DNA from: a virus
IMG/VR virus record: IMGVR_UViG_3300011116_000260
Coordinates: 1 to 64,000 of that record
Strand: one strand, 5' to 3'
DNA: 64,000 nucleotides
This document shows positions 47,173-64,000 of the stretch, piece after piece. A program made the translations under genes and the position numbers. How positions within the stretch are numbered: position 1 is the stretch's first letter; each line of letters opens with the position of its first letter. The notes below the pieces were generated by a model. The model had not been told where the DNA came from. It saw only the letters and a list, made by a program, of their open reading frames with translations, and ran no database searches.

Positions 47173-49668
47173 CTAGTGAAAGAAATACTCAGCATCAAGA
47201 ACAGAAGATATATTAAAGTTACTGATATCTGGTGGTGTTGGTAATTCTACACCTAAATTAATTTCAAGTTCATTTTTTAATTTGTGTAGTAATGGTTCTT
47301 TATGCATCTCATAGAACTCCTCTTTTGTGTATTGTCTCATTAAAGGAACAAGCGGAGCAGAACAGCCATATGAATCATGTACAAAACTAAAATTATAAAC
47401 GCCAGCATTAAGCATTTTATTAATTGTCATCCACATATGACTAGCGTCAAGACTGTGGATATAGTTAGGACTTACAGCCAAGTTAACTTGAGTATCATCA
47501 ATCTGACTAGAATCAGTAGATCCAAAATGAAGTTCTTTCATGTTGAACAACTTTGCAATTGATCTTCGTGTTAGAATTTCATAATATTGATGGACAACTT
47601 TAAAACCACATGGAGTAGTCCACTCAAGATTCTTTCCCATATTGCTAGCTATATCAGCAACTTGTTTAAGCCATACTTTACCATGATTAGCATTAGTCAA
47701 AGTATTCTTTAAACACTTATCAATATAAGTAGCAAGTTCCATAACTGCACCAGCAATACGATCCTTGTTAACCCAATCTAAATGACCTTCTGTTTTACAG
47801 TATCTGCGAATACCGTAGAAAGTAACACCATAAGGATCTGTCATAACAGCACGCTTACATACTGATCTTGGTATTTTATTATCCCAATGAGCTAAGAATA
47901 ACTGCGCCCAATCTTTAGTATTAGGATCTGCATTATCATCTTTAGAATCATTAGACATTGATGCTGTCATAGAGTCAGCAACAAAACCATATAAATCCTG
48001 TGGATCTTTATTTCCAGTAAGATTTACTTTGTAAGCAAGATCAACATCACGCATAATAGCAGCCCAATGTTGAACGCCATTACAAGAACCGTCAATTTGA
48101 ATCGGTAATTGAGTTAGTCCATCAGTTCGACAAAGTTCAAAGATTGCAGCTAAACGCTGAAAACTAGGATTCTTTTTCTTCTTATCACTAACCCAGAACC
48201 AACGCATTTCAAATGGATCTTTAGCAGTATCTTGAATGTTATCAAGATTCTCATCTACCCACTTAATACGGTCTTCAAATGGTAGTTTATCTTGATCAAA
48301 CAAATTAGCAAGATGAACCTTAAGCCAGTATCTTCCATTTTCAGTTTGCTTAATTGGTTTAGCAAAGTGAATTAAACTACGATCAAAGTCAGAACTTTGT
48401 GGAGATAATAGATCACATGCAGTATAAGCACGACCTCTAAAGTCACAAGTATAAATATGATAGAAGAAACCCCACTTCATCAAATCATGTGCAACCTTTA
48501 ATCGTACTAACATACGGCCACGCGATCTTTCTTCTTTATACCAAGAAGACCAAGATTCTTCTTTACGCTGACACCACTTAGCTTTTTCTTCTTTTGTTCC
48601 AGTCTCAGGATAAGCCTCACCAAAATCAAAAGCATCAAAGTTATACGCAGGAAGATTAGCTTCTCTAGTATTATTGTGAAACATTGCATTCATTACTGCA
48701 TAGACTTTATAATTAATAGCCCATTCAGTATGCATCAAAGCATTCAAACCACGAATAACCATTTCACTTGGAGTTGAGTTTTTCTGAACAACAGTCTCAT
48801 CCCAATGAACATCTCTAAACTTTTGAACAACTGGTTTGCGAATCCAAGGCATTAAGTTACCACCTGAAGAAGTAACAGTATGTTCAGCAGGAGGAACAAT
48901 CATAGGACGATACAGTAGACTTGCTCTTGAGATCAAGTCCTTATGTCTATTATGAAGTTCCTGAAGAAGTTCATCAGTAAAACTTACAACAACTCTTTCA
49001 TACCAACGATTACCAATACGCTTTCTAAAGTTCTTAATAAGAATAATGTTACTCATTTCAGCAATGCGAAGCATATGATGACCGAAGTCTTCGCGTTGCT
49101 TTCTAGTAAATTGTTTCTTATTAATGCAATTCATTTTACCAGCAAATGCACGACATCTTTTTGTAGTCCAGTTCTTTTGGTAATGAGATTGCTTTAACCA
49201 ATCATCTCTAAAATCTTTCTTAGCTGCTTGATATGCAACAATATCAATAGCCATGTTAGAAATTTGATGAGCCATATGCTGTGCAGATGGCAGAGGTAGG
49301 CTGTGAATATCTCCATCCTTACCATCCATCTTACGATCCCAAGTGTTTGAGTTAAACCATTCAAGCATAAGACAACGAATAGTAATATCAGCCATCTTAC
49401 CAGCACCAACAGCAAACAAAGGATAAGCCCAATCAGGAGTCTTACGATTCTTTGAAACCATATCAATCCACTCTTGATAGAATGGAGTTAGATGAATAAC
49501 ACAACTATCTAATAGACCCTGCTCAGGATATCCCTCATCAGGAGATCTGTTATACTCTTCCCAATATCTATTATTGGAAAGGTTTAACATTTCTTCTTCA
49601 AGCATTGCCTGATAATTTTTTCTACTCTCCTGAACTTCTGGCTTTAGTAAATTCCATAACTCAGGCAT
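47173..49668 (-). CDS. T7-type single-subunit RNA polymerase
   Basis: 831 residues (T7: 883). Catalytic marks: IQIDGSCNGVQHWAAI (motif A, Asp near 525), SVCKRAVMTDPYGVTFYG (motif B, Lys near 605 and Tyr near 613), FVHDSYGCSAP (motif C, Asp near 762) and an aromatic C terminus (EYFFH) like the FAFA end of T7. GGAGG stands before the start. It should transcribe middle and late genes from its own promoters, for which the GTTGGRGCTA elements are my best candidates. Confidence 0.95.
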   Translation of the reverse strand: MPELWNLLKPEVQESRKNYQAMLEEEMLNLSNNRYWEEYNRSPDEGYPEQGLLDSCVIHLTPFYQEWIDMVSKNRKTPDWAYPLFAVGAGKMADITIRCLMLEWFNSNTWDRKMDGKDGDIHSLPLPSAQHMAHQISNMAIDIVAYQAAKKDFRDDWLKQSHYQKNWTTKRCRAFAGKMNCINKKQFTRKQREDFGHHMLRIAEMSNIILIKNFRKRIGNRWYERVVVSFTDELLQELHNRHKDLISRASLLYRPMIVPPAEHTVTSSGGNLMPWIRKPVVQKFRDVHWDETVVQKNSTPSEMVIRGLNALMHTEWAINYKVYAVMNAMFHNNTREANLPAYNFDAFDFGEAYPETGTKEEKAKWCQRKEESWSSWYKEERSRGRMLVRLKVAHDLMKWGFFYHIYTCDFRGRAYTACDLLSPQSSDFDRSLIHFAKPIKQTENGRYWLKVHLANLFDQDKLPFEDRIKWVDENLDNIQDTAKDPFEMRWFWVSDKKKKNPSFQRLAAIFELCRTDGLTQLPIQIDGSCNGVQHWAAIMRDVDLAYKVNLTGNKDPQDLYGFVADSMTASMSNDSKDDNADPNTKDWAQLFLAHWDNKIPRSVCKRAVMTDPYGVTFYGIRRYCKTEGHLDWVNKDRIAGAVMELATYIDKCLKNTLTNANHGKVWLKQVADIASNMGKNLEWTTPCGFKVVHQYYEILTRRSIAKLFNMKELHFGSTDSSQIDDTQVNLAVSPNYIHSLDASHMWMTINKMLNAGVYNFSFVHDSYGCSAPLVPLMRQYTKEEFYEMHKEPLLHKLKNELEINLGVELPTPPDISNFNISSVLDAEYFFH

Positions 49669-51293: not shown

Positions 51294-51307
51294 ATAAACT
51301 CCAATAG

Positions 51308-51380
51308 TGAGGCTACGGAGATTCGAACTCCGGTCAAGAGGATGAAAGCCTCCTATCCTAGACCACTAGACGATAGCCCC
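51308..51380 (-). tRNA. tRNA-Glu (TTC)
   Basis: Acceptor GGGGCTA with TAGCCTC, D arm TCGTCTAGTGG, anticodon loop CTTTCAT (anticodon TTC), T arm CCGGAGTTCGAATCTCCG-like stem. 73 bases. Reads GAA/GAG, frequent in this AT-rich genome. Confidence 0.93.
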
Positions 51381-51384
51381 AACA

Positions 51385-51457
51385 TGACCAAGGTGGGATT
51401 CGAACCCACACTACAAACATTTTAAGTGTTTTGACTCTGCCGTTGGTCTACTTGGCC
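51385..51457 (-). tRNA. tRNA with anticodon TAA (Leu) but short variable arm
   Basis: Acceptor GGCCAAG pairs with CTTGGTC, T arm GTGGG, loop TTCGAAT, CCCAC, anticodon arm AAACA, loop CTTAAAA, TGTTT. The anticodon TAA reads UUA (Leu). The variable loop is only about five bases, whereas bacterial Leu tRNAs carry a long arm. It may be read by a different synthetase or be an unusual Leu tRNA. Confidence 0.85.
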
Positions 51458-51463
51458 GCATAT

Positions 51464-51646
51464 TTAAATCTTACCGTCAAACAAATCATTAAGCTGCTTA
51501 ACAATTTTATCTATGTTTTTATTTTTAGTAACTTTCTTTTTACTCTTTTTCTTTCCAAAGATTTCGTCGTAGTTCTTATCGTATTGCTGTTTATCAATAG
51601 GACGATATCGACTACCCTTACCACCATGCCATTGTCCACTACCCAT
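51464..51646 (-). CDS. Small conserved protein (WHGGKGS type)
   Basis: 60 residues from the ATG at 51646 (AAGGAG upstream). GSGQWHGGKGSRYRPIDKQQ then YDKNYDEIFGKK matches a short phage family with GGKGS and a closing IFG. Basic tail. Function unknown. Confidence 0.6.
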   Translation of the reverse strand: MGSGQWHGGKGSRYRPIDKQQYDKNYDEIFGKKKSKKKVTKNKNIDKIVKQLNDLFDGKI

Positions 51647-51650
51647 TATA

Positions 51651-51818
51651 TCATATCTCCTTATGCTTGTCAAGTTTCTTTACTTCGTAACTATCAGGAT
51701 GAACGGTATGATTTCTTCGCCACTTATCGGCCTCTTTATCAGAGTCCCAATAAGCAATATCATTTTTGTTTTCCATCATCCAATCTTTTAGATTTTTACA
51801 CCATAGTCCATATTTCAT
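51651..51818 (-). CDS. Small unknown protein
   Basis: 55 residues. MKYGLWCKNLKDWMMENKND then AYWDSDKEADKWRRNH. Aromatic-rich, starting right after tRNA-Arg. Its stop falls in the ribosome site of the next gene. Function unknown. Confidence 0.55.
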   Translation of the reverse strand: MKYGLWCKNLKDWMMENKNDIAYWDSDKEADKWRRNHTVHPDSYEVKKLDKHKEI

Positions 51819-51822
51819 AAAG

Positions 51823-51896
51823 CGTTCCTGAATGGAATCGAACCATTAGCCTTAGCATTAGAAGTGCCACGCTCTATCCAATTGAGCTACAGGAAC
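51823..51896 (-). tRNA. tRNA-Arg (TCT)
   Basis: Acceptor GTTCCTG/CAGGAAC, D arm TAGCTCAATTGGATAGAGC, anticodon loop CTTCTAA (TCT), T arm ATGG...TTCGATT. Reads AGA, a common codon of AT-rich phages. Confidence 0.93.
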
Positions 51897-51903
51897 ACAT
51901 ATA

Positions 51904-52290
51904 TCAATTACCCTTATATGGGGGAGTTGACTGAACATATCCATTCAACTCCTTCATAATAGTCTGATAAATAGTAGACACAGTCTTAGAAAGACGCTCA
52001 TCAATAAGAGCCTTAATCAAGTCATTAATATAACGCATATCATCAGAATTAATATTCTTCTTAGATTCCTCAAGATTAGCCTGAATAGCATCTGTAATCA
52101 TAGTATCAACTTCAGAAAGAATATCATCCTTCATATCAGAAATACTAGAATCACACACCTGTTCAACTTCATAACGAATATTATCAATCTCGTCCTTATA
52201 CTCACAATAGTGATCAGAAATCTTCTCGTCAATAATATCGTTAACACTATCCTTAATCAATTCATCAAGCTGCTCTGCAAAAGTACTCAT
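51904..52290 (-). CDS. Acidic helical early protein
   Basis: 128 residues, strongly acidic with repeated Asp/Glu/Ile helices (SVNDIIDEKISDHYCEYKDE). Starts at 52290 after GAAAGGAAAG. No family recognised. An acidic early protein could mimic DNA, but that is only a guess. Confidence 0.6.
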   Translation of the reverse strand: MSTFAEQLDELIKDSVNDIIDEKISDHYCEYKDEIDNIRYEVEQVCDSSISDMKDDILSEVDTMITDAIQANLEESKKNINSDDMRYINDLIKALIDERLSKTVSTIYQTIMKELNGYVQSTPPYKGN

Positions 52291-52331
52291 TACACTTTCC
52301 TTTCAAATAGAAGTTAAATACCAAACAATAG

Positions 52332-52405
52332 TAGGGGTGGTGGGACTCGAACCCACATGTACGCGATTATAAGTCACGGCCTTCCTCCAGTTCAGGCACA
52401 CCCCA
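52332..52405 (-). tRNA. tRNA-Ile (TAT)
   Basis: Anticodon loop CTTATAA (TAT, reads AUA), T arm GTGGG, loop TTCGAGT, CCCAC. The acceptor is TGGGGTG/CACCCCT with a mismatched first pair. 74 bases. AUA is rare in most GC-rich hosts. Confidence 0.85.
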
Positions 52406-52410
52406 GTAAA

Positions 52411-52731
52411 TCATGGTTCTCTAGCGTTATCTTTAACATACTCATGGCACGCATCGGAAATGTTGATAGCGAACGCAGGATCAAATGATTCGATTGACTT
52501 AACAATTGAATTTTCATCGGCATCATATTCAATAATAGACACATCCGACACATCAACATAACCAAGTTCCCATTCCCAATCTTCATGGACACCAGTAGCA
52601 CCATAGTAATCATACCAACCAATACCATTATCTACATAATGCCAAGTCTCAAGAGATCTAAAGTTAACTAAATAATCAATACAATTAATATTAATTTTAA
52701 TTTCTTCATAGTCCCTAAATAACTCTTTCAT
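52411..52731 (-). CDS. Acidic early protein
   Basis: 106 residues with AAGGAG before the ATG. Acidic and aromatic (WHYVDNGIGWYDYYG, DWEWELGYVD). It lies between tRNA-Ile and tRNA-Lys. No family recognised. Confidence 0.6.
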   Translation of the reverse strand: MKELFRDYEEIKININCIDYLVNFRSLETWHYVDNGIGWYDYYGATGVHEDWEWELGYVDVSDVSIIEYDADENSIVKSIESFDPAFAINISDACHEYVKDNAREP

Positions 52732-52746
52732 AGTATTCTCCTTAAG

Positions 52747-52819
52747 TGCCCCCTGTAGGGATCGAACCTACGACCTATTGATTAAAAGTCAACTGCTCTA
52801 CCAACTGAGCTAAGAGGGC
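52747..52819 (-). tRNA. tRNA-Lys (TTT)
   Basis: Acceptor GCCCTCT/AGGGGGC, D arm TAGCTCAGTTGGTAGAGC, anticodon loop CTTTTAA (TTT), T arm with GGTTCGATCC. 73 bases, ends with A. Confidence 0.95.
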
Positions 52820-55205: not shown

Positions 55206-55410
55206 TTGCGTTATCTCCAAGATAGAATTCAAGATCGTCACGATGAACAGCAGCAACATCGCAACCAACAACACCACCAAAGTTATTCATTGCAGCACGA
55301 TTAGCATCATACTTAGTTTCGTGATAACTAAGTGTACGCCACTTGCGATTATCAGCAGTACGATACACAACCCACCAATCATGTGCAGTATCTCTTGCAT
55401 TAGTTTCCAT
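55198..55410 (-). CDS. Small early protein
   Basis: 70 residues from ATG at 55410 (AAAGGAAG). METNARDTAHDWWVVYRTAD then AAMNNFGGVVGCDVAAVHRD. 8-base overlap with the MPNWC gene. Function unknown. Confidence 0.55.
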   Translation of the reverse strand: METNARDTAHDWWVVYRTADNRKWRTLSYHETKYDANRAAMNNFGGVVGCDVAAVHRDDLEFYLGDNANA

Positions 55411-55735
55411 TATGCTTCCTTTCGATGGTATATCCATCATAGAAAGTATCAATCACATCATTGATACGAATGTACCATTGATATTGTGACTGATAAATGT
55501 AACCATTGATTCCAAGACCCCAAAGAATGGCATTCAACCTAGACTTAGTTGTAACTGTACGCCATCCTGCGGAATACAGAGTAACAGAATCAACAGTTAC
55601 CTTGGCAATAAGATTGCCATGAAGATGAACAAGAACAGCATCAGTATCATTGCAGGAATAAATCTCAGTATTCCCAAACTTACGACACTTGCGATTCTTG
55701 ATTGTGTCAACCATATTTCGCTCAACAGTTCGCAT
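55400..55735 (-). CDS. Conserved early phage protein
   Basis: 111 residues with TAGGAGA before the ATG at 55735. VLVHLHGNLIAKVTVDSVTL then GWRTVTTKSRLNAIL and YQSQYQWYI match a recurring early phage protein of unknown role. First gene after the structured stretch at 55741-56220. Confidence 0.7.
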   Translation of the reverse strand: MRTVERNMVDTIKNRKCRKFGNTEIYSCNDTDAVLVHLHGNLIAKVTVDSVTLYSAGWRTVTTKSRLNAILWGLGINGYIYQSQYQWYIRINDVIDTFYDGYTIERKHNGN

Positions 55736-55740
55736 TTGAT

Positions 55741-56220
55741 TCTCCTAGATAGAAAAGAACAGAGTGAGTTGCAACTATGGGTGGACATTCCCACAGTTAT
55801 TATTCATTGTGTATAGAACCAACTATGCAACATTACCCATTCTCTATACCGTTTGGGTAAGCATCACAAATAACCCTTTCGCCATAGTTGCAAGATACTC
55901 TGTAAGTGTATCGTAGGGTACTCTTCCGAAGAAGAATACCGTGGCGAACCACTTACCTACCTTGATTCAGGACATATCTCGATACCCATCTAACTCTCCT
56001 TTGTATAGATGATGAATCCATACAACATATGTGGTGATTATCTACGGTATACTATGATACCACGCGAATATCCCTAGTATACTACGGTTGCCCTAATGTG
56101 GTTTCTACTCGTTAGAGTAAGTATAGTTCCTATGGAACACCACCAACTTACATAAGGCTATGAAACATTCCCATGATATTTCTACCATGAGAACGCGGGA
56201 GAGTACCGCCCTCCGAAGGA
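55741..56220 (-). ncRNA. Candidate large structured noncoding RNA B
   Basis: About 480 bases with no convincing gene and many stems. On the minus strand: GTGG-TTCG-CCAC (55941-55952) directly beside a ten-pair stem capped by C(TTCG)G (55917-55940, one G-U pair), a 12-pair closing stem TTGCAACTATGG with CCATAGTTGCAA (55882-55893 with 55769-55780) that encloses smaller stems, eight pairs GTATACTA with TAGTATAC (56047-56082), and GTTCC-ATA-GGAAC (56126-56138). TTCG loops and G-U pairs fit minus-strand RNA. It lies next to tRNA genes, as do GOLLD and ROOL RNAs in other phages, but I see no proof of membership. A 39-codon frame inside is probably accidental. Confidence 0.6.
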
Positions 56221-56224
56221 TCAG

Positions 56225-56386
56225 TTACTTCTTACGAAGTGTTTCGATTTCCACACCGTATGTGTCAAACGCAGACACGATTGTGAACGCATCGCTTGGT
56301 TCTCTTTGCTCATTTTCAGGCACAAGATATCCCATCTTGTGGAGAATTCTTGCCTGAGTAAGTAACCACTTCTCAAGTTCTGTCAT
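56225..56386 (-). CDS. Small early protein
   Basis: 53 residues with AAAAAGGAA before the ATG. MTELEKWLLTQARILHKMGY then FDTYGVEIETLRKK: a small helical acidic protein. Codons and ribosome site support it. Function unknown. Confidence 0.6.
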   Translation of the reverse strand: MTELEKWLLTQARILHKMGYLVPENEQREPSDAFTIVSAFDTYGVEIETLRKK

Positions 56387-56399
56387 TTGATTTCCTTTT

Positions 56400-56471
56400 T
56401 CAATCCATAACCGTAATCAATACGGCCAATGGAATACCAACAAAGACCAGCAGGATTGCGAGGAGAAACAT
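56400..56471 (-). CDS. Tiny membrane peptide
   Basis: 23 residues, almost all one membrane span (FLLAILLVFVGIPLAVLIT). GAAAGG lies nine bases before the ATG. So short that it could be chance, but the spacing to the next gene is tight. Confidence 0.4.
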   Translation of the reverse strand: MFLLAILLVFVGIPLAVLITVMD

Positions 56472-56492
56472 GTCCAAACCTTTCTCCGGTAT

Positions 56493-56615
56493 TTACCGGA
56501 AGTTGTGTTGAAAGATATCCATAGGATATTTCACCAATGGACACCCAATAGATTGATTCTGTGGTTTATCGTATAAGCGGATAGTAAAATCGCGGTCTTT
56601 GAAGATCAGATCCAT
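56493..56615 (-). CDS. Possible small protein
   Basis: 40 residues (MDLIFKDRDFTIRLYDKPQN). The composition looks protein-like but I see no ribosome site, and the frame runs through one copy of the 36-base hairpin repeat. Confidence 0.3.
   Translation of the reverse strand: MDLIFKDRDFTIRLYDKPQNQSIGCPLVKYPMDIFQHNFR
56510..56545 (-). repeat. Hairpin repeat, copy 1
   Basis: Minus strand begins GGTGTCCATTGGTGAA and ends TATGGATATCTTTC. It matches copy 2 at 56768-56802 in all but a few bases. TCCAT pairs with ATGGA, giving a hairpin. Confidence 0.65.
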
Positions 56616-56807
56616 TTATTTATTTGCGAGGATGTGATCGACAATACATAGCGGTACTACCCATAACGAGGGGTGTTCCACAATCTATCCCGTAAGGTGG
56701 GATATTCATCTATCCTGCCCGTGCTTTCTCCACTACTGCAATGGAGGGCATGACCTACAGTAAATGGGAAAGATATCCAATGGTTATTCACCAATGGATA
56801 CCAAAGA
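56616..56807 (-). other. Hairpin-rich gap in the leader zone
   Basis: About 190 bases with no gene. Short perfect stems occur on the minus strand, for example CTCCA/TGGAG near 56725-56745 and ATCCC/GGGAT near 56685-56705, plus repeat copy 2. It may belong to a structured leader RNA. Confidence 0.4.
56768..56802 (-). repeat. Hairpin repeat, copy 2
   Basis: Minus strand begins GGTATCCATTGGTGAA and ends CATTGGATATCTTTC. TATCCA pairs with TGGATA around a shorter loop. It follows the stop of the 82-residue gene directly. Confidence 0.65.
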
Positions 56808-57366: not shown

Positions 57367-57651
57367 TTAGAGGCCAAGGTCGATAGAGACAGACAGAGAC
57401 TCGGCCAACTTGCGGGCATTGCGAGTATCCGCATTCTCCACGCTAACCGGAATCGACTCCTCCACGAAAGCCTGCCAAGCCTCACGATTCGTGCTGATCG
57501 TGCAGCCGAACATATGCTCAATCTTTCCACGAATCACGGTAGCGTTACGCTTACCCTTGTTCGACAGAACCCCAGCATTCACCAGAGCGTTGAACACCTT
57601 CACGACACACATGCGCTGATCGGCGAACGACAGACTGTTCCACTTGTTCAT
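57367..57651 (-). CDS. Small early protein
   Basis: 94 residues from ATG at 57651 (AAGGATTC). MNKWNSLSFADQRMCVVKVF then EAWQAFVEESIPVSVENADT: a small helical protein with GC-rich codons. It is the first protein gene in the early direction. Function unknown; position suggests very early expression. Confidence 0.6.
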   Translation of the reverse strand: MNKWNSLSFADQRMCVVKVFNALVNAGVLSNKGKRNATVIRGKIEHMFGCTISTNREAWQAFVEESIPVSVENADTRNARKLAESLSVSIDLGL

Positions 57652-57659
57652 TTCAGAAT

Positions 57660-58230
57660 CCTTGCCCATTCGGGCGGCTATAGTAACCCTATGCACTAGA
57701 CCATCTAATGCATGGGATTCGATACCCTACCATAGCAGGATACCGAATCCCCCCCGAACGGGTTGCCAAGGATTCCTCTAGAAATAAGCAGGAACCCACC
57801 CATTCGGGGAGGATCGGAAATACAATTTCGGCGGACTAACCGTCCACATAGCCGGGAACCTTACAGTTACCCATCCGGCTACTCGATCCCTTCATCGGAT
57901 CGAACCTAGACCGCTTGAATGCTGCACCGTAGACCGATGCATTCCTCCCCGCTTCCTCCCTTTCGGGATTAGCAGGACATTCAAGGCTTACGCCTAGCCG
58001 CACTTTGCTGGTCGCGGCTACCGTTGAACCGTTCTCATGGCATCGGATGATTCCATCCAATCGTTCCGCCGTGCGTCTTTCGGGCAGCGTGCGGACATGA
58101 GAACGGGATGTCAAAGAACCTGCGGACAATTCATCATAGCGGATATCCGATTCCCCACTAACCCATTCCACGCATTCTAGGATTATCGGACTGCCTGTAG
58201 TTATCGGCGCAGGGGATGCCCGTCCGATAA
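57660..58230 (-). ncRNA. Candidate large structured noncoding RNA A
   Basis: About 570 bases dense in perfect minus-strand stems: TTATCGG/CCGATAA (58201-58230), eleven pairs CCGTTCTCATG/CATGAGAACGG (58029-58039 with 58096-58106) enclosing TTGGATG-GAAT-CATCCGA, TAGCCGC/GCGGCTA (57995-58020), AGGC-GTAA-GCCT (57984-57995), TCCC-GAAA-GGGA (57957-57968), GAATGC/GCATTC, CGATCC/GGATCG, TAGCCGG/CCGGCTA (57849-57881) and GCCC-GAAT-GGGC (57664-57675). GNRA loops appear only when read on the minus strand. It lies between tRNA-Asn and the first early gene. Size and setting recall GOLLD/ROOL-type phage RNAs; membership is not shown. Confidence 0.65.
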
Positions 58231-58290
58231 CGCAGGGGGGCCACGGGGGGGCGCGGCGCGGGGGATTTAGGGGGATACCCCTTTATAAAT
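58231..58290. other. GC-rich tract with G runs
   Basis: Runs of six and seven G with CGCGGCGCG between them, then GGGGATTTAG and a GGGGTATCCCC hairpin on the minus strand. It contrasts sharply with the AT-rich genome. It could mark the packaging or terminal-repeat region, or be an assembly artefact. Confidence 0.4.
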
Positions 58291-58317
58291 TTTCCACCCC
58301 TAAGTCGATTTTTCAAA

Positions 58318-58390
58318 CTCTCCCAGATGGACTTGAACCAACGACCCGAGAGTTAACAGCTCTCTGCTCTACCGACTGAGCTATAGGAGA
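58318..58390 (-). tRNA. tRNA-Asn (GTT)
   Basis: Acceptor TCTCCTA/TGGGAGA with a G-U pair, D arm TAGCTCAGTCGGTAGAGC, anticodon loop CTGTTAA (GTT), T loop TTCAAGT. Ends with G. Stands alone upstream of RNA A. Confidence 0.93.
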
Positions 58391-58558
58391 ATATACCACC
58401 AAAGGTATCTGGGGCTACCGAGGTGGATTGTATTATTCAATTTATATCGAAATCGACCGGGATCATAGTGTAGTGTTATTTTGTATTGATACCAAGGAAT
58501 CCCCTACGATCCCGACAGGGAACTAAGATAATAAATACAATATTATTTAATCTATAGG
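58391..58558. other. Intergenic stretch without a gene
   Basis: AT-rich with a nested hairpin CCACC..GGTA..TACC..GGTGG (minus) directly before tRNA-Asn. A weak sigma70-like pair TTGGTA and TACACT, 17 bases apart, lies on the minus strand near 58460-58490. Not strong enough to call a promoter. Confidence 0.3.
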
Positions 58559-58620: not shown

Positions 58621-61600
58621 TTATTGATTATTAGACATGTCTTTCAATAGGTTGGCCAAGTCTGTAGATACACCTTTGTTATTGGTATATGTTATTGGTC
58701 TTTGTATTGAATTCTTTCTATCTTGTAAGAACTTGTTGGTTTCTTCTAAGTATCTAGTTCTATTTTCCCTTAGTTTGTTTTCGATTTCTCTAGACTGAAC
58801 TGGGACAATATTGTGATTACTAGAGATATTCTCAGGCTTATTAATATACTTATTCTTTCCTTTTTGGATAAGTTTAAGATACTTAGCAAATGAATTATTT
58901 TCATCAATTGCTTCTAACTCTTGTAATAACCTAGCTGGTACTGCAACTGGACTCTTATTAAAGACAATGTTATAAGGAATAATATCTCCAAACTTAGCAA
59001 TCATTTCTTCCTTAGACATTTCACCACCTTTGGTTAGTAATTCCTTACCAGAACCAAGAGCCTTGCTTGTATAAGCATTGAGTACGCTAAATGCTGGAGG
59101 ACTTATTGGATTTGAGAATCCCTTGTAAGTACCACCAGTAAGTTCTGAGATACCAGCTAAAGTTCCAGAGAATAGGCCAGATAAAGAACCAAATACTGGA
59201 AGTGTACTAGCCATTCTAAATACAGATGTACTTGGATCTTTTAACTCTTGCTTGATGTCTGAAATATCTCGTCCACTTAACCAATCTATTAGTAATTCTG
59301 ACATATAAGTAAGAGCTGAATATAATATAACTACTTCAGCCATAACAACTGTTGGCTTCTTTAATTGTAAATTTTCAAGAACATTACTCTTGAAGGATTG
59401 TGACCATTGTAATAAAGATCTAACAAATCTACCAAAGCCAGTTTTAGAAGTAATTGAAATATCTCTATTTAGTCCTCTTGAGTCTGAAATTAAACCATCA
59501 GTTGAGATTTGTGTTTCAATAGCATATACAAAATCGCTAAAAGCTTCATCCAATACTTCTTTTGGAATAGGACCATTGGGACCAGTCATATAAGCATCTA
59601 CCTTTGCCTGTAGTGCTGTTAGATTAAAGACTCCGTTCTTATTGGTTCCTGTTTGTTCCATGATATATTTTAATGCCTTTAACTTATCAGCATCTAGTAA
59701 TCTAAATCTCATAAAGGTTAAAGCATGATCCCAGTTACCACCAAATCCAGCTTCTCTAGCCAACTTCTTTTGAAGGGCTGATAATTGCTTATCTGCTTTT
59801 TCTGAAGTAGCTGATAATCCCTGTAATCTTTCTAGTTCTGCCTTATTAGCTGGATTTTCCATTAATGCTAACAGTCTTAAAGCAGCTCCACTTACAATAT
59901 ACTTAGCATTTCTTTGTGTAAATCTTCCTAGTGCAAAGTGTTTTGAAATACCAGTAATATACTTTACTGAACCAACTTCTACGCCAAGATTACCTATTGT
60001 TTCAATAGCGGCTGTTAGTTTAGTACTATCTTCTCTTGTCTTAGTCAATCTCTTCCACCAACCATCATTTAAAGATGGAATACCTGAAACAGAATTTGTT
60101 TGTAAATATCTATCTTCAATTTCGGAAAGATAACTACGAATTCCGTGTACAGTTAAAAATACTTGTTGTTTTAATGCTTCAGATGGTCTTCTATCTAAGA
60201 ACATCTTAAATACACCAAACGCATTATCTATAGTTTCTCTAATACCAACTTCTGGTAATGCAGTAATAACATTGATAAAGGATTCAGCGGTGCTACGAAG
60301 ACCCCAACCCTGACCTGATGTTGCTCTTAGAACACCACCAGCAGCTCTGCTAAATTGTTCTCCTGTTTCACCATATGCAGACATAATGCGTGGGTTTCTA
60401 CCAGCATATTCAGCATAATCTTCAGCTAGTCTTCTCATACCACCCTGAAGATCTTTCTGTAGTTCTTCATTTGATCCAGCCATTCTCATTAGTAGTTTAC
60501 TGGCCGCATCAAATACTTCGTAGATACGAATACCTTTATGACCTATCATTCTATCTAGTTCTGCTTGTACTAATAGTTCAAAACCTCTATGATTAATTAG
60601 ATTATCATAAGCAGCTAGTGGATTGGTTCTGATAATATCTTTTATTAGAGGACTATTGAATACTTCCTTCCAATCAAGATTCTTAACAGCAAATCCTTGA
60701 TTATCTCCACCCTTACCAAATAGTTGTAAGAATGCGTTATCACCCATTTCTGGCTTTTGAATATATCTATGATAATTACCTTCTCTTAACTTAAAGGCTA
60801 ATAGTTCTTCCATCATAACTTGAAGAACTGGTTTTGTATTACCAAAGTTAGTCTTCCATTGATCTGCAATGTGAGTTGTAACTCCATCTACTGTTTCCAT
60901 ATATCTAGCCAAGTCTCTTGGACTTAGATCGTCTACCTTTTCTGGAATAGCACAGATTACAATCTGACCAGTTGCTGGATCTTCATAAGAGAAGAACTTA
61001 GTATCAGCTTCTCTTCTAATTTCAGGAATCTTCTTAAGATCAGTACCGGGAGCATATCGTCTATTGCCAGCCTTAGCCTCTAGTCTTGAAAGAGTATCAG
61101 CATCAAAACCAGTCTCACCTATATGTAGTTGATCTCTACCTTCTTTACCACGACTTGTTAATGGGTTTCCTTCTGTATCCCATAACCAACCCATAGCAAG
61201 CATAATACTACGATCTAATGTTTCATCGTTTCTAATAGTATCTTTTCTTACTCTAACCATTTCATCAACGATTTGAGTACGATCATTCTTAGTTACTTTA
61301 TCACGATCAAATGTTAGTGCAAAGTAGTTTTCAGCTGGAACTGGATTACCAGCGTCATCCTTAATACTAATCCATTCAGTAGAGTTTTCTAGATCTAGAA
61401 TGAATTTATTTCTACGAATTGTTTCATCTCTTAGATTCTTTGCTGAAGTAAAGATAGCATCAATGTATGCTGGTTGAGCTGCTGAGTTAATAGCAATAAC
61501 AGCTGCTTGAATATCTGCTCGTTGTAGTGGTCGCTTGGTTGATACTAAAGACTTAACAATTTCTAGTTCAACTGCTTGCATTACTCGTAGATCTCCTGTT

Positions 61601-64000
61601 TGAATAGCAAGATCTCTATTTAAGGTAATCAAAGCTCTCTTTGATCTTTGAACCTGATGAGCAGCGCCTTCCCAAGTTTTAAACGCATGAGTACCAGACT
61701 TTACTAATTGATGGGTCATTACCTTTCCGTTTTCAGCCATTGAAGAAAGCCATCGTAGTAAGTTATTCATACTACGAAGAGTTTTACCTTCGCCAGTTGC
61801 AAATGAAGTAAGACCTGACATCCAACTTAGTGTTTTTCTAAATGCGTTTCTATTTGTTTTTTCTGATCCTCTAAACAATCTAGCAATAAAGTTTGTAGCT
61901 CTAAATACTTCTGTATGTTCTGTTGCTAGATTATTTAAGAAGTTAAGTAGTATACTTTGTGTTGGTGGTAGTTTTTCTGCTTCTATATCAACAACTACAC
62001 CTAAACCTAAATCTTTTTTAGCAGATTCAATATCTACTTTTACCTTTGCTCCAGCATAAGTTTGTGCTGCATAGCTACCCTTTTTCATTCTAACTTTATC
62101 AGGATAATTTAGTGTAATATTATCTGCACTAAATACAAAGTCATGTGGAGATGGTGGTCTAGTAAACTCTGGTAATTCTGTACCATATCTTGCGTTATAG
62201 GATGCAATAGCTTGATCAGTCTTTGCCTTTGCAAAGTCTAGAATTTGATCTAAAGTCTTTACTGAGATTTGTTCAGTTGGAGTACTTCTTGCATCTAGTT
62301 CTTTTGCAATTTCAATATCATAGTATGACCAGAAAATATTATTAATTGTTTCAAATCTAGTACCAAATTTTTCTTGATTAATATTAGAAATAGTTGAATA
62401 GATGTTATATACTTTATCTAGGAAATGTAAGAATTGATCTGGAATTGTTTCGATCTTCTTACCAAGATTTTCTCTTAGTCCAGAAGTAATTCTATGGAAG
62501 TTAAGTAGTAGAATCTTAACAAACTTAGGATCTGTTCCAGAGTTTCTAAGTAAAGATTCTCCAGCCATCATTTGAGCATCGAACTTATCTACATTATTAA
62601 GAATAACTGTTTCAGCTTTTCCTGCTTTAATCTTTGGATCAGTAGCTGGTGTTCTACCAGTCTTTGGGTCCATATCAACAGGAAGTTTTTCTGGATTAAC
62701 TGTTGGCTTATCTACAATAACCTTTGGATCATCAACAATTGGTGGATCTATTGGTTTTCTAATCTTAGGTAATCTACTACCTAAATCAATAGTTACTTCT
62801 TTTTTAACTACAGTATCGCTAGTTGGAATAGCAGCAACTGTTTTATTTTCCTCTCCTGTAAGAATAAGAAGATCAACTCCATTTTCTTTTAGTGCTTCAA
62901 TTAATTTAACTTCTACACCAGCATGTCCAGCTGTTGGTTCCATTGATCTCCAATCAGCAACACTTTGCATTGTATTAATTAAGATATCTTTATGTAATCC
63001 AAGTTTTTCAAAAACACTTTCTGGAGTTTTTTTTAAAGAGTATAATATTAGATAATCTGATGATTTAGCACTTGGATCTTTTTTTAATCTTTCTTTATCA
63101 TATTTACTAAGTTTTAATTTTAACTCAAGTGTTTTTTTCTTTTTATCTACTTTAACTTTACTAATAGACTTATTTTCATCTGTTGCAATAATAGCTGCTT
63201 TTTCTTCTGGTACTAATACAGAACCAGCTTTAACTGATTCATCTTTAGTTTCTCCAGAAACAAACATTACTTCTTCGTTGTTTTTTACTGGTACTTCTGG
63301 CATTGCTACTGGAAGTTCAGTTGTTTCTTTTGAAACAGCAACTTCAAGGCTGGTTCTAATTTTTCTAGATGCTTCTAGTTTTGCTCTAGCTTCTTCTAGT
63401 GAAACGATCTTTGGTTTTTCTTTACCATTAAGAATAGCATCCGACTTCTTAGCAATAATTGCCTTTGTTGTTTCTGTAATATTTTCTGTTACAGATGTTG
63501 GTCTTACTTCATCGTTTACTAATTTAATTTCTCCATCAAGTTGTTGTACTTGTTTTCTTAAAGCAGCTTTAGCATTTTGTAGTTGTTTATCAGTAATACC
63601 AAGTAATAACGCAACACCCTTATCTGTTAGTTCAGGATTATTTTGTTTTGCAATTGTATATTTAACAACAAGATCTTTAACTTTTTCTGATAGGTTTGTT
63701 TGTGGAATTAGTTCTTGTAGGTTTTTAGCTTGTTCTTGTTTTATTGGCTTAATAGATTCAAGAGCAGCTTTAGCGTCTACTATATCAATATCTGTTCCTT
63801 CTTTTGTAACAAGACCATAAGAAACCTTTTGTGCTTTTCTCTTTTGCTTTGTAGCTGCTTCTTTTGCTACATTACTTGCAAATTTAAAAACATAATTAAA
63901 CTTTTCTCTTTCTGTAGTCATCTTACTTAGATCAGCGTTAACTTTATCTCTGTTCATAAGAATTTTTTCAATGACCTTTTGTACTAGATCTTCTACAGAT
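58621..64000 (-). CDS. Giant internal virion-type protein, C-terminal half (same gene as 1-5145)
   Basis: This is the downstream half of the frame that starts at 5145. Positions 63886-64000 equal 1-115, and the frame is the same in both copies, so this is one gene and not two. An internal ATG at 63957 is residue 1692 of the full protein and has no good ribosome site. The half is mostly predicted helix with many charged residues. A hydrophobic segment lies near residues 3225-3245 and a glycine/serine-rich apolar stretch (LPVFGSLSGLFSG) near 3280. Such C-terminal patches suit a protein that is ejected and meets membrane, but that is inference. The stop at 58621 is followed at once by a conserved element and a strong hairpin, marking the end of the late transcript. 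Confidence 0.85.
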   Translation of the reverse strand, partial: SVEDLVQKVIEKILMNRDKVNADLSKMTTEREKFNYVFKFASNVAKEAATKQKRKAQKVSYGLVTKEGTDIDIVDAKAALESIKPIKQEQAKNLQELIPQTNLSEKVKDLVVKYTIAKQNNPELTDKGVALLLGITDKQLQNAKAALRKQVQQLDGEIKLVNDEVRPTSVTENITETTKAIIAKKSDAILNGKEKPKIVSLEEARAKLEASRKIRTSLEVAVSKETTELPVAMPEVPVKNNEEVMFVSGETKDESVKAGSVLVPEEKAAIIATDENKSISKVKVDKKKKTLELKLKLSKYDKERLKKDPSAKSSDYLILYSLKKTPESVFEKLGLHKDILINTMQSVADWRSMEPTAGHAGVEVKLIEALKENGVDLLILTGEENKTVAAIPTSDTVVKKEVTIDLGSRLPKIRKPIDPPIVDDPKVIVDKPTVNPEKLPVDMDPKTGRTPATDPKIKAGKAETVILNNVDKFDAQMMAGESLLRNSGTDPKFVKILLLNFHRITSGLRENLGKKIETIPDQFLHFLDKVYNIYSTISNINQEKFGTRFETINNIFWSYYDIEIAKELDARSTPTEQISVKTLDQILDFAKAKTDQAIASYNARYGTELPEFTRPPSPHDFVFSADNITLNYPDKVRMKKGSYAAQTYAGAKVKVDIESAKKDLGLGVVVDIEAEKLPPTQSILLNFLNNLATEHTEVFRATNFIARLFRGSEKTNRNAFRKTLSWMSGLTSFATGEGKTLRSMNNLLRWLSSMAENGKVMTHQLVKSGTHAFKTWEGAAHQVQRSKRALITLNRDLAIQTGDLRVMQAVELEIVKSLVSTKRPLQRADIQAAVIAINSAAQPAYIDAIFTSAKNLRDETIRRNKFILDLENSTEWISIKDDAGNPVPAENYFALTFDRDKVTKNDRTQIVDEMVRVRKDTIRNDETLDRSIMLAMGWLWDTEGNPLTSRGKEGRDQLHIGETGFDADTLSRLEAKAGNRRYAPGTDLKKIPEIRREADTKFFSYEDPATGQIVICAIPEKVDDLSPRDLARYMETVDGVTTHIADQWKTNFGNTKPVLQVMMEELLAFKLREGNYHRYIQKPEMGDNAFLQLFGKGGDNQGFAVKNLDWKEVFNSPLIKDIIRTNPLAAYDNLINHRGFELLVQAELDRMIGHKGIRIYEVFDAASKLLMRMAGSNEELQKDLQGGMRRLAEDYAEYAGRNPRIMSAYGETGEQFSRAAGGVLRATSGQGWGLRSTAESFINVITALPEVGIRETIDNAFGVFKMFLDRRPSEALKQQVFLTVHGIRSYLSEIEDRYLQTNSVSGIPSLNDGWWKRLTKTREDSTKLTAAIETIGNLGVEVGSVKYITGISKHFALGRFTQRNAKYIVSGAALRLLALMENPANKAELERLQGLSATSEKADKQLSALQKKLAREAGFGGNWDHALTFMRFRLLDADKLKALKYIMEQTGTNKNGVFNLTALQAKVDAYMTGPNGPIPKEVLDEAFSDFVYAIETQISTDGLISDSRGLNRDISITSKTGFGRFVRSLLQWSQSFKSNVLENLQLKKPTVVMAEVVILYSALTYMSELLIDWLSGRDISDIKQELKDPSTSVFRMASTLPVFGSLSGLFSGTLAGISELTGGTYKGFSNPISPPAFSVLNAYTSKALGSGKELLTKGGEMSKEEMIAKFGDIIPYNIVFNKSPVAVPARLLQELEAIDENNSFAKYLKLIQKGKNKYINKPENISSNHNIVPVQSREIENKLRENRTRYLEETNKFLQDRKNSIQRPITYTNNKGVSTDLANLLKDMSNNQ
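63886..64000. repeat. Terminal overlap, right copy
   Basis: Identical to 1-115. It implies a unit length of 63,885 bp. The overlap could extend beyond 115 bases if the contig is longer than this window. Confidence 0.95.

What the first reader, a model, noticed from the sequence alone, without database searches (positions are those of the whole stretch)
57660..58230. Candidate large ornate RNA beside tRNA-Asn
The stretch contains many perfect stems of 5-11 pairs with GNRA loops (GTAA, GAAA) and three or more GAAT-capped stems, and no gene with a ribosome site. The GNRA pattern holds only for the minus strand, the direction of transcription. Large structured RNAs (GOLLD, ROOL) are known in phages next to tRNAs, but I cannot place this one.
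Basis: partly seen in the sequence, partly recalled or inferred. Interest (0 to 1): 0.85.

Follow-up and report, generated by a model that had tools for sequence, protein, structure and literature searches.

The report
Large phage RNA with exchangeable core
Between the last late gene and the first early gene of this uncultivated bacterial virus lies a real, elaborately folded, non-coding RNA of about 650 bases that matches no known RNA family, and related viruses carry unrelated folded RNAs in the same slot.

Summary
Minus strand 58234-57649 (somewhat wider than reported) has no conserved gene and folds far better than shuffles. No Rfam family matches it, even weakly.

The decisive evidence is a homologous virus (L123), 74% identical over about 400 nt of the core. 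The window's own predicted fold, transferred to L123, keeps 27 pairs in which both bases changed; shifting the fold by 1-3 bases leaves 2-5. The consensus has 162 pairs in 23 helices, 34 of them doubly changed (shifted: at most 3). The rival reading frame fails: substitutions are equal at the three codon positions (43/40/40), with a 2-nt indel and stops.

The locus is wider than one RNA. A single-copy leader motif marks this late/early boundary in 43 viral contigs. About 14 of them have 530-790 nt of noncoding sequence after it, with shared 5' repeats and hairpins just before the first ORF. The cores fall into at least six groups that do not align, three of them with their own covariation. The closest relative by RNA polymerase (95%) lacks the core.

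Best reading: the leader of an early transcript, with an exchangeable structured RNA and a 3' hairpin domain for processing or translation control. Function is inferred, not shown. The RNA resembles GOLLD/ROOL in kind but is not a member.

The parts
58317..58391 (-). tRNA-Asn (GUU), directly upstream; present in the close relatives L002/L117, L003/L115, L012/L128, L111, L116, L123, L138 and not found in more distant ones
58234..58311 (-). conserved leader box AAATCGACTTAGGGGTS..AAATT..GGGG-(about 25 variable nt)-CCCCCC.TA.CCCC; one copy per phage contig at the late/early boundary; DNA site or RNA stem not resolved
58180..58233 (-). TTATCGGAC / GTCCGATAA repeat cluster (direct and inverted copies), shared in kind with relatives
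   Evidence: read directly in the sequence
58133..58169 (-). block GGAATGGGTTAGTGGGGAATCGGATATCCGCTATGATG, nearly identical in L117/L115 although the core after it differs
57827..58124 (-). structured core (A-type), homologous only in L123; many compensatory changes; not alignable in L117/L115
58029..58106 (-). core stem-loop: 11-bp helix 58106-58096 / 58039-58029 (7 of 11 pairs changed on both sides in L123) enclosing two hairpins with invariant stems
   Evidence: helices 8-10
57649..57823 (-). 3' domain: three strong hairpins closed by UAUUUC.GAUCCU / AGGAUU..GAAAUG, which covers the SD and start codon of the first ORF
   Evidence: helices 18-23
57767..57775 (-). GAAUCCUUG, perfect complement of the SD region (CAAGGAUUC, 57664-57656); can also pair inside its own hairpin, so two exclusive pairings are possible
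   Evidence: I3; sequence
57367..57651 (-). first early ORF, 94 aa from ATG with SD AAGGA, no family match

Best explanation
The stretch encodes a large structured noncoding RNA that forms the leader of the phage's early operon. Shown by sequence comparison: it is noncoding, its secondary structure is conserved by selection, it lies in the same slot in related phages, its ends (leader box, TTATCGGAC repeats, hairpins before the first ORF) are shared in kind, and its core is replaced by unrelated structured cores or absent in relatives. Inferred: it is transcribed from the minus strand together with tRNA-Asn at the start of infection; the hairpin domain just before the first ORF is a processing and/or translation-control element (as with the RNase III hairpins in front of T7 early genes), so that the core RNA is released as a separate stable RNA and the early mRNA starts downstream. 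The exchangeable core would then act as an accessory early RNA, for instance in host take-over or counter-defence, or as a scaffold like GOLLD/ROOL.
For: Covariation: 34 of 162 consensus pairs changed on both sides, 100% canonical, against at most 3 when slid and a mean of 17.1 in shuffles, 0/500. With structures predicted from one sequence alone and tested on the other: 27 and 28 double changes against 2-5 slid. The same test is positive in other groups: L126/L102 20 vs 2-4, L133/L135 16 vs 0-5 (consensus folds). Not coding. Leader box in 43 records, always once; in several it directly follows a TAA stop codon. 530-790 nt of noncoding sequence after it in the window clade, only about 90-200 nt in many distant phages. 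3' domain: a model from other groups scores 83-147 bits on their close members, and weak second copies recur before the next early ORF in several loci (E 0.005-0.24), some of them 22-bp hairpins. SD occluded in window, L123 and L117 (unpaired 0.15-0.22). Core absent in L012 although its RNA polymerase is 95% identical.
Against: No transcript data: expression, ends and processing are unproven. The window's own core type is known from only two genomes. No recognisable promoter was found. SD occlusion is not seen in all groups (L109 0.76, L133 0.54 unpaired), so translation control cannot be the shared function. The R1 model does not hit the window's own 3' domain: common architecture there rests on layout, not on a score. 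RNase III processing rests on analogy.
Confidence: 0.55

Rival explanations
1. Purely cis-acting 5' UTR: the whole folded region is one regulatory leader controlling the first early ORF, with no separate RNA.
For: It ends exactly at the SD/start codon; SD occluded in window, L117 and L123; complementary GAAUCCUUG / CAAGGAUUC allows a switch. Similar hairpins stand before the next ORFs.
Against: The core (about 300-450 nt) is far larger than SD control needs, is replaced wholesale, and the L117 3' domain stays about 95% identical to the window's although its core does not align. SD occlusion is not general.
Confidence: 0.25
2. DNA element of the genome end or replication origin: leader box and TTATCGGAC repeats are sites for packaging or initiation, and the RNA structure is secondary.
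For: Position between last late and first early gene; leader box single-copy with nearly fixed spacing; 4 of 43 contigs end within 100 nt of it; inverted repeats.
Against: This can account for the first about 130 nt only. Compensatory changes throughout the core and hairpins are as expected for RNA; consensus energy favours the minus strand (-209 against -155 kcal/mol).
Confidence: 0.12
3. A divergent member of a known large RNA class (GOLLD, ROOL, OLE, HEARO) or a catalytic intron.
For: Size, phage origin, tRNA neighbour; GOLLD too has a conserved 3' part and a variable 5' part (PMC12286853).
Against: No Rfam hit to these families, nor to group I/II introns, up to E = 5 in the window and E = 2 in seven relatives.
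Confidence: 0.05
4. Protein-coding gene (frame 57836-58171).
For: Open frame of 111 codons.
Against: Substitutions 43/40/40 by codon position, frame-shifting indel, stops in the homolog; no family match.
Confidence: 0.01

Closest known systems
GOLLD RNA (phage/prophage, near tRNAs)
   Same: Large, ornate, phage-borne, beside tRNA, one part conserved and one part variable.
   Different: No sequence/structure match in Rfam scans; here the RNA directly precedes an early ORF and its core is exchanged for unrelated cores.
ROOL RNA
   Same: About 600-700 nt, phage-borne, near tRNAs, function unknown.
   Different: No Rfam match; oligomer formation unknown.
RNase III hairpins in front of phage T7 early genes (from general knowledge)
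   Same: Long hairpins immediately upstream of successive early ORFs in phages with a T7-type RNA polymerase.
   Different: Here a hairpin array with a large extra RNA upstream of the first; cleavage not tested.
SD-occluding 5' leaders / riboswitch-like leaders
   Same: Closing helix covers SD and AUG in window, L123 and L117.
   Different: Much larger; occlusion not conserved in all groups; no ligand known.

Membership tests
GOLLD | match to the Rfam covariance model | tested here: not met
   no hit at gathering or E<=5; relatives E<=2
GOLLD | phage location near tRNA genes | tested here: met
   tRNA-Asn 58317-58391
GOLLD | forms an RNA-only nanocage | not testable with these tools
   needs cryo-EM
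ROOL | match to the Rfam covariance model | tested here: not met
group I / group II intron | match to intron core models | tested here: not met
Pistol or other known self-cleaving ribozyme | Rfam match within the element | tested here: not met
   Pistol occurs a few kb downstream in L002, L003, L114 but not in the window
structured noncoding RNA (general) | compensatory base-pair changes beyond controls | tested here: met
structured noncoding RNA (general) | transcribed as a discrete RNA | not testable with these tools
   no RNA-seq
T7-type RNase III early processing sites | long hairpin just 5' of successive early ORFs | tested here: met
T7-type RNase III early processing sites | cleavage by RNase III | not testable with these tools
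   needs in vitro or in vivo assay
SD-occluding translational leader | SD paired in the predicted ensemble across homologs | tested here: inconclusive
   paired in window, L123, L117, L134; largely open in L109, L133

The most novel reading that the evidence does not exclude
The early end of these phages holds a cassette slot for RNA: unrelated, elaborately folded RNAs of about 300-450 nt are swapped in and out between constant ends, as anti-defence proteins are elsewhere, so each core would be a different RNA effector (decoy, inhibitor or scaffold) made at the start of infection.
Probability: 0.3. Interest if true: 0.85.

Novelty: new variant of a known kind. Interest (0 to 1): 0.62.

Why it matters
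Large ornate phage RNAs are few and their functions unknown. This adds a group with covariation support, in a defined place (leader of the early region of phages with T7-type RNA polymerase), with close relatives that have, lack or replace the core. That natural variation makes the question of what such RNAs do testable. It also suggests that hypervariable early phage loci may carry RNA as well as protein effectors.

Tried and rejected
Rfam at gathering and permissive thresholds: only tRNAs in the element. First alignment with L123 and one with wrong L123 coordinates (A8) are invalid and unused. One search used a structure string shifted by one column in part; repeated correctly. Leader box as a repeated T7-type phage promoter: rejected, one copy per genome and no other hit within 3 mismatches; no sigma-70 site better than chance; motif search of intergenic DNA gave only A-rich words. 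Hit of the leader box in a Bacillaceae draft genome (L139) lies in a TnpB-like gene (codons for IDLGVKNF, read by eye): judged a chance match, since the phage box has internal indels and invariant third positions. Further core homologs: L136, L137 and L140 are chance matches. Isolated phages: none found to carry the box and the closest RNA polymerase is 28% identical. A paper listing structured RNA candidates in phages (Fremin et al., from memory) is not held, so overlap with it is unchecked.

Full report
Setting. The window is a 64 kb uncultivated virus record with a single-subunit, T7-type RNA polymerase (47173-49668), a fused primase-helicase, DNA polymerase, ribonucleotide reductase, nozzle and tail-fibre proteins. 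All main genes run on the minus strand. The finding lies between a 1778-aa gene (58621-63957), which is followed by tRNA-Asn, and a run of small early ORFs, RNA polymerase and replication genes. In map order this is the boundary between the last late and the first early gene (inferred from gene order).

The observation. The minus strand folds better than shuffles (z -4.7); the plus strand also does (z -3.7), as expected for a helix-rich region, but less stably. The region is GC-rich (55% against 35% for the genome). Rfam finds nothing but tRNAs.

Homologs. Two contigs (L002=L117, L003=L115) share the flanks, tRNA-Asn, leader and 3' part at 87-90% but not the core, and carry a 61-nt insertion in a hairpin loop. 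A conserved leader box found in the comparison was used to scan viral contigs: 44 stretches, one of them an apparent chance match (L132), the other 43 with one copy each. Among them L123 carries a homologous core, 74% identical over about 400 nt.

Covariation. On the window/L123 alignment (A4) the consensus has 162 pairs in 23 helices. 34 are changed on both sides with pairing kept; sliding the partner by 1-3 columns leaves at most 3, and 500 shuffles average 17.1 with none reaching 34. Because that structure was derived from both sequences, the test was repeated with the structure predicted from one sequence alone: 27 (window to L123) and 28 (L123 to window) double changes against 2-5 when slid. 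The clearest helix is CCGUUCUCAUG/CAUGAGAACGG, which is CCACGAUUCUC/GAGAAUCGUGG in L123.

Not coding. In the 57836-58171 frame, substitutions are 43, 40 and 40 at the three codon positions; the homolog has stops and an indel of 2 nt. The first plausible gene is the 94-aa ORF starting at 57651.

The wider family. About 14 of the box-bearing records have 530-790 nt without a gene after the box; many distant ones have only 90-200 nt. The long ones mostly share TTATCGGAC/GTCCGATAA repeats near the 5' end and strong hairpins before the first ORF, but their cores fall into groups with little or no detectable similarity: window+L123; L117+L115; L102+L118+L126 (with weaker similarity to L133+L135); L104+L109; L093+L107; L134; L114. 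Within groups the independent-structure test is again positive (L126/L102 13-20 vs 0-4; L133/L135 10-16 vs 0-6; L118/L102 11-15 vs 0-6; weak for L118/L126, 4-9 vs 0-5). L012, whose RNA polymerase is 95% identical, has the same tRNA and box but a short leader and another ORF instead; so do L116 and L138. The core is thus an accessory, exchangeable module.

The 3' domain. A covariance model of the domain from six sequences of other groups (R1) finds it in their close members and gives weak second hits, in several loci, just before the next ORF; several of these are hairpins of about 22 bp. This resembles the RNase III hairpins in front of T7 early genes (general knowledge). In the window, L123 and L117 the closing helix covers SD and AUG (SD unpaired 0.15-0.22), but not in all groups. 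R1 does not score the window's own 3' domain; the claim of common layout there rests on the folds.

How it may work. Shown: a noncoding, structured, selected RNA sequence at a fixed place. Inferred: transcription with tRNA-Asn as the leader of the early operon, separation of the core by processing at the 3' hairpins, and an accessory role of the core. Not known: promoter, ends, partner, effect.

Known or new. In kind it is like GOLLD and ROOL, which are also large, phage-borne and near tRNAs, with unknown function (PMC12286853), but it fails the tested membership criterion (Rfam models). No isolate phage was found to carry the box. Overlap with published lists of computational candidates could not be checked.

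Noticed in passing
L002:5869-5943, L003:5295-5371, L114:2350-2421: Pistol ribozymes a few kb downstream of the element in relatives; none found in the window itself.
   Followed up: partly
window 56768-56803 and 56510-56545 (minus): A 35-nt hairpin repeat (GGTRTCCATTGGTGAA.A.CC.ATGGATATCTTTC) between small early ORFs; more copies in L002, L003 and L012.
   Followed up: no
window 55401-55600 and 55736-56807 (minus): Second strongly structured, gene-poor early region (z -6.2 at 55401-55600; z -2 to -3.6 up to 56800).
   Followed up: no
L117 1674-1734, L135 (3' domain), L123 3' domain: Insertions of about 50-60 nt sit exactly in loops of the 3' hairpins in three different lineages.
   Followed up: no
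L125 from about 1660: After the leader box a distant phage has a tandem series of hairpins AAATCGGATA..CTTGTCCGATTTG, a possible relative of the TTATCGGAC repeats.
   Followed up: no
L094, L110, L111, L131: Four of 43 contigs end within 100 nt of the leader box; two contigs of one sample overlap by about 100 nt there, which fits variable flanks or a genome end.
   Followed up: partly
L139:37-59: The leader box matches the RuvC-I codons of a TnpB-like gene in a Bacillaceae draft genome; judged coincidence.
   Followed up: yes
window 51307-52819: Array of five tRNAs (Glu, Leu, Arg, Ile, Lys) between early ORFs and RNA polymerase, conserved in close relatives.
   Followed up: no
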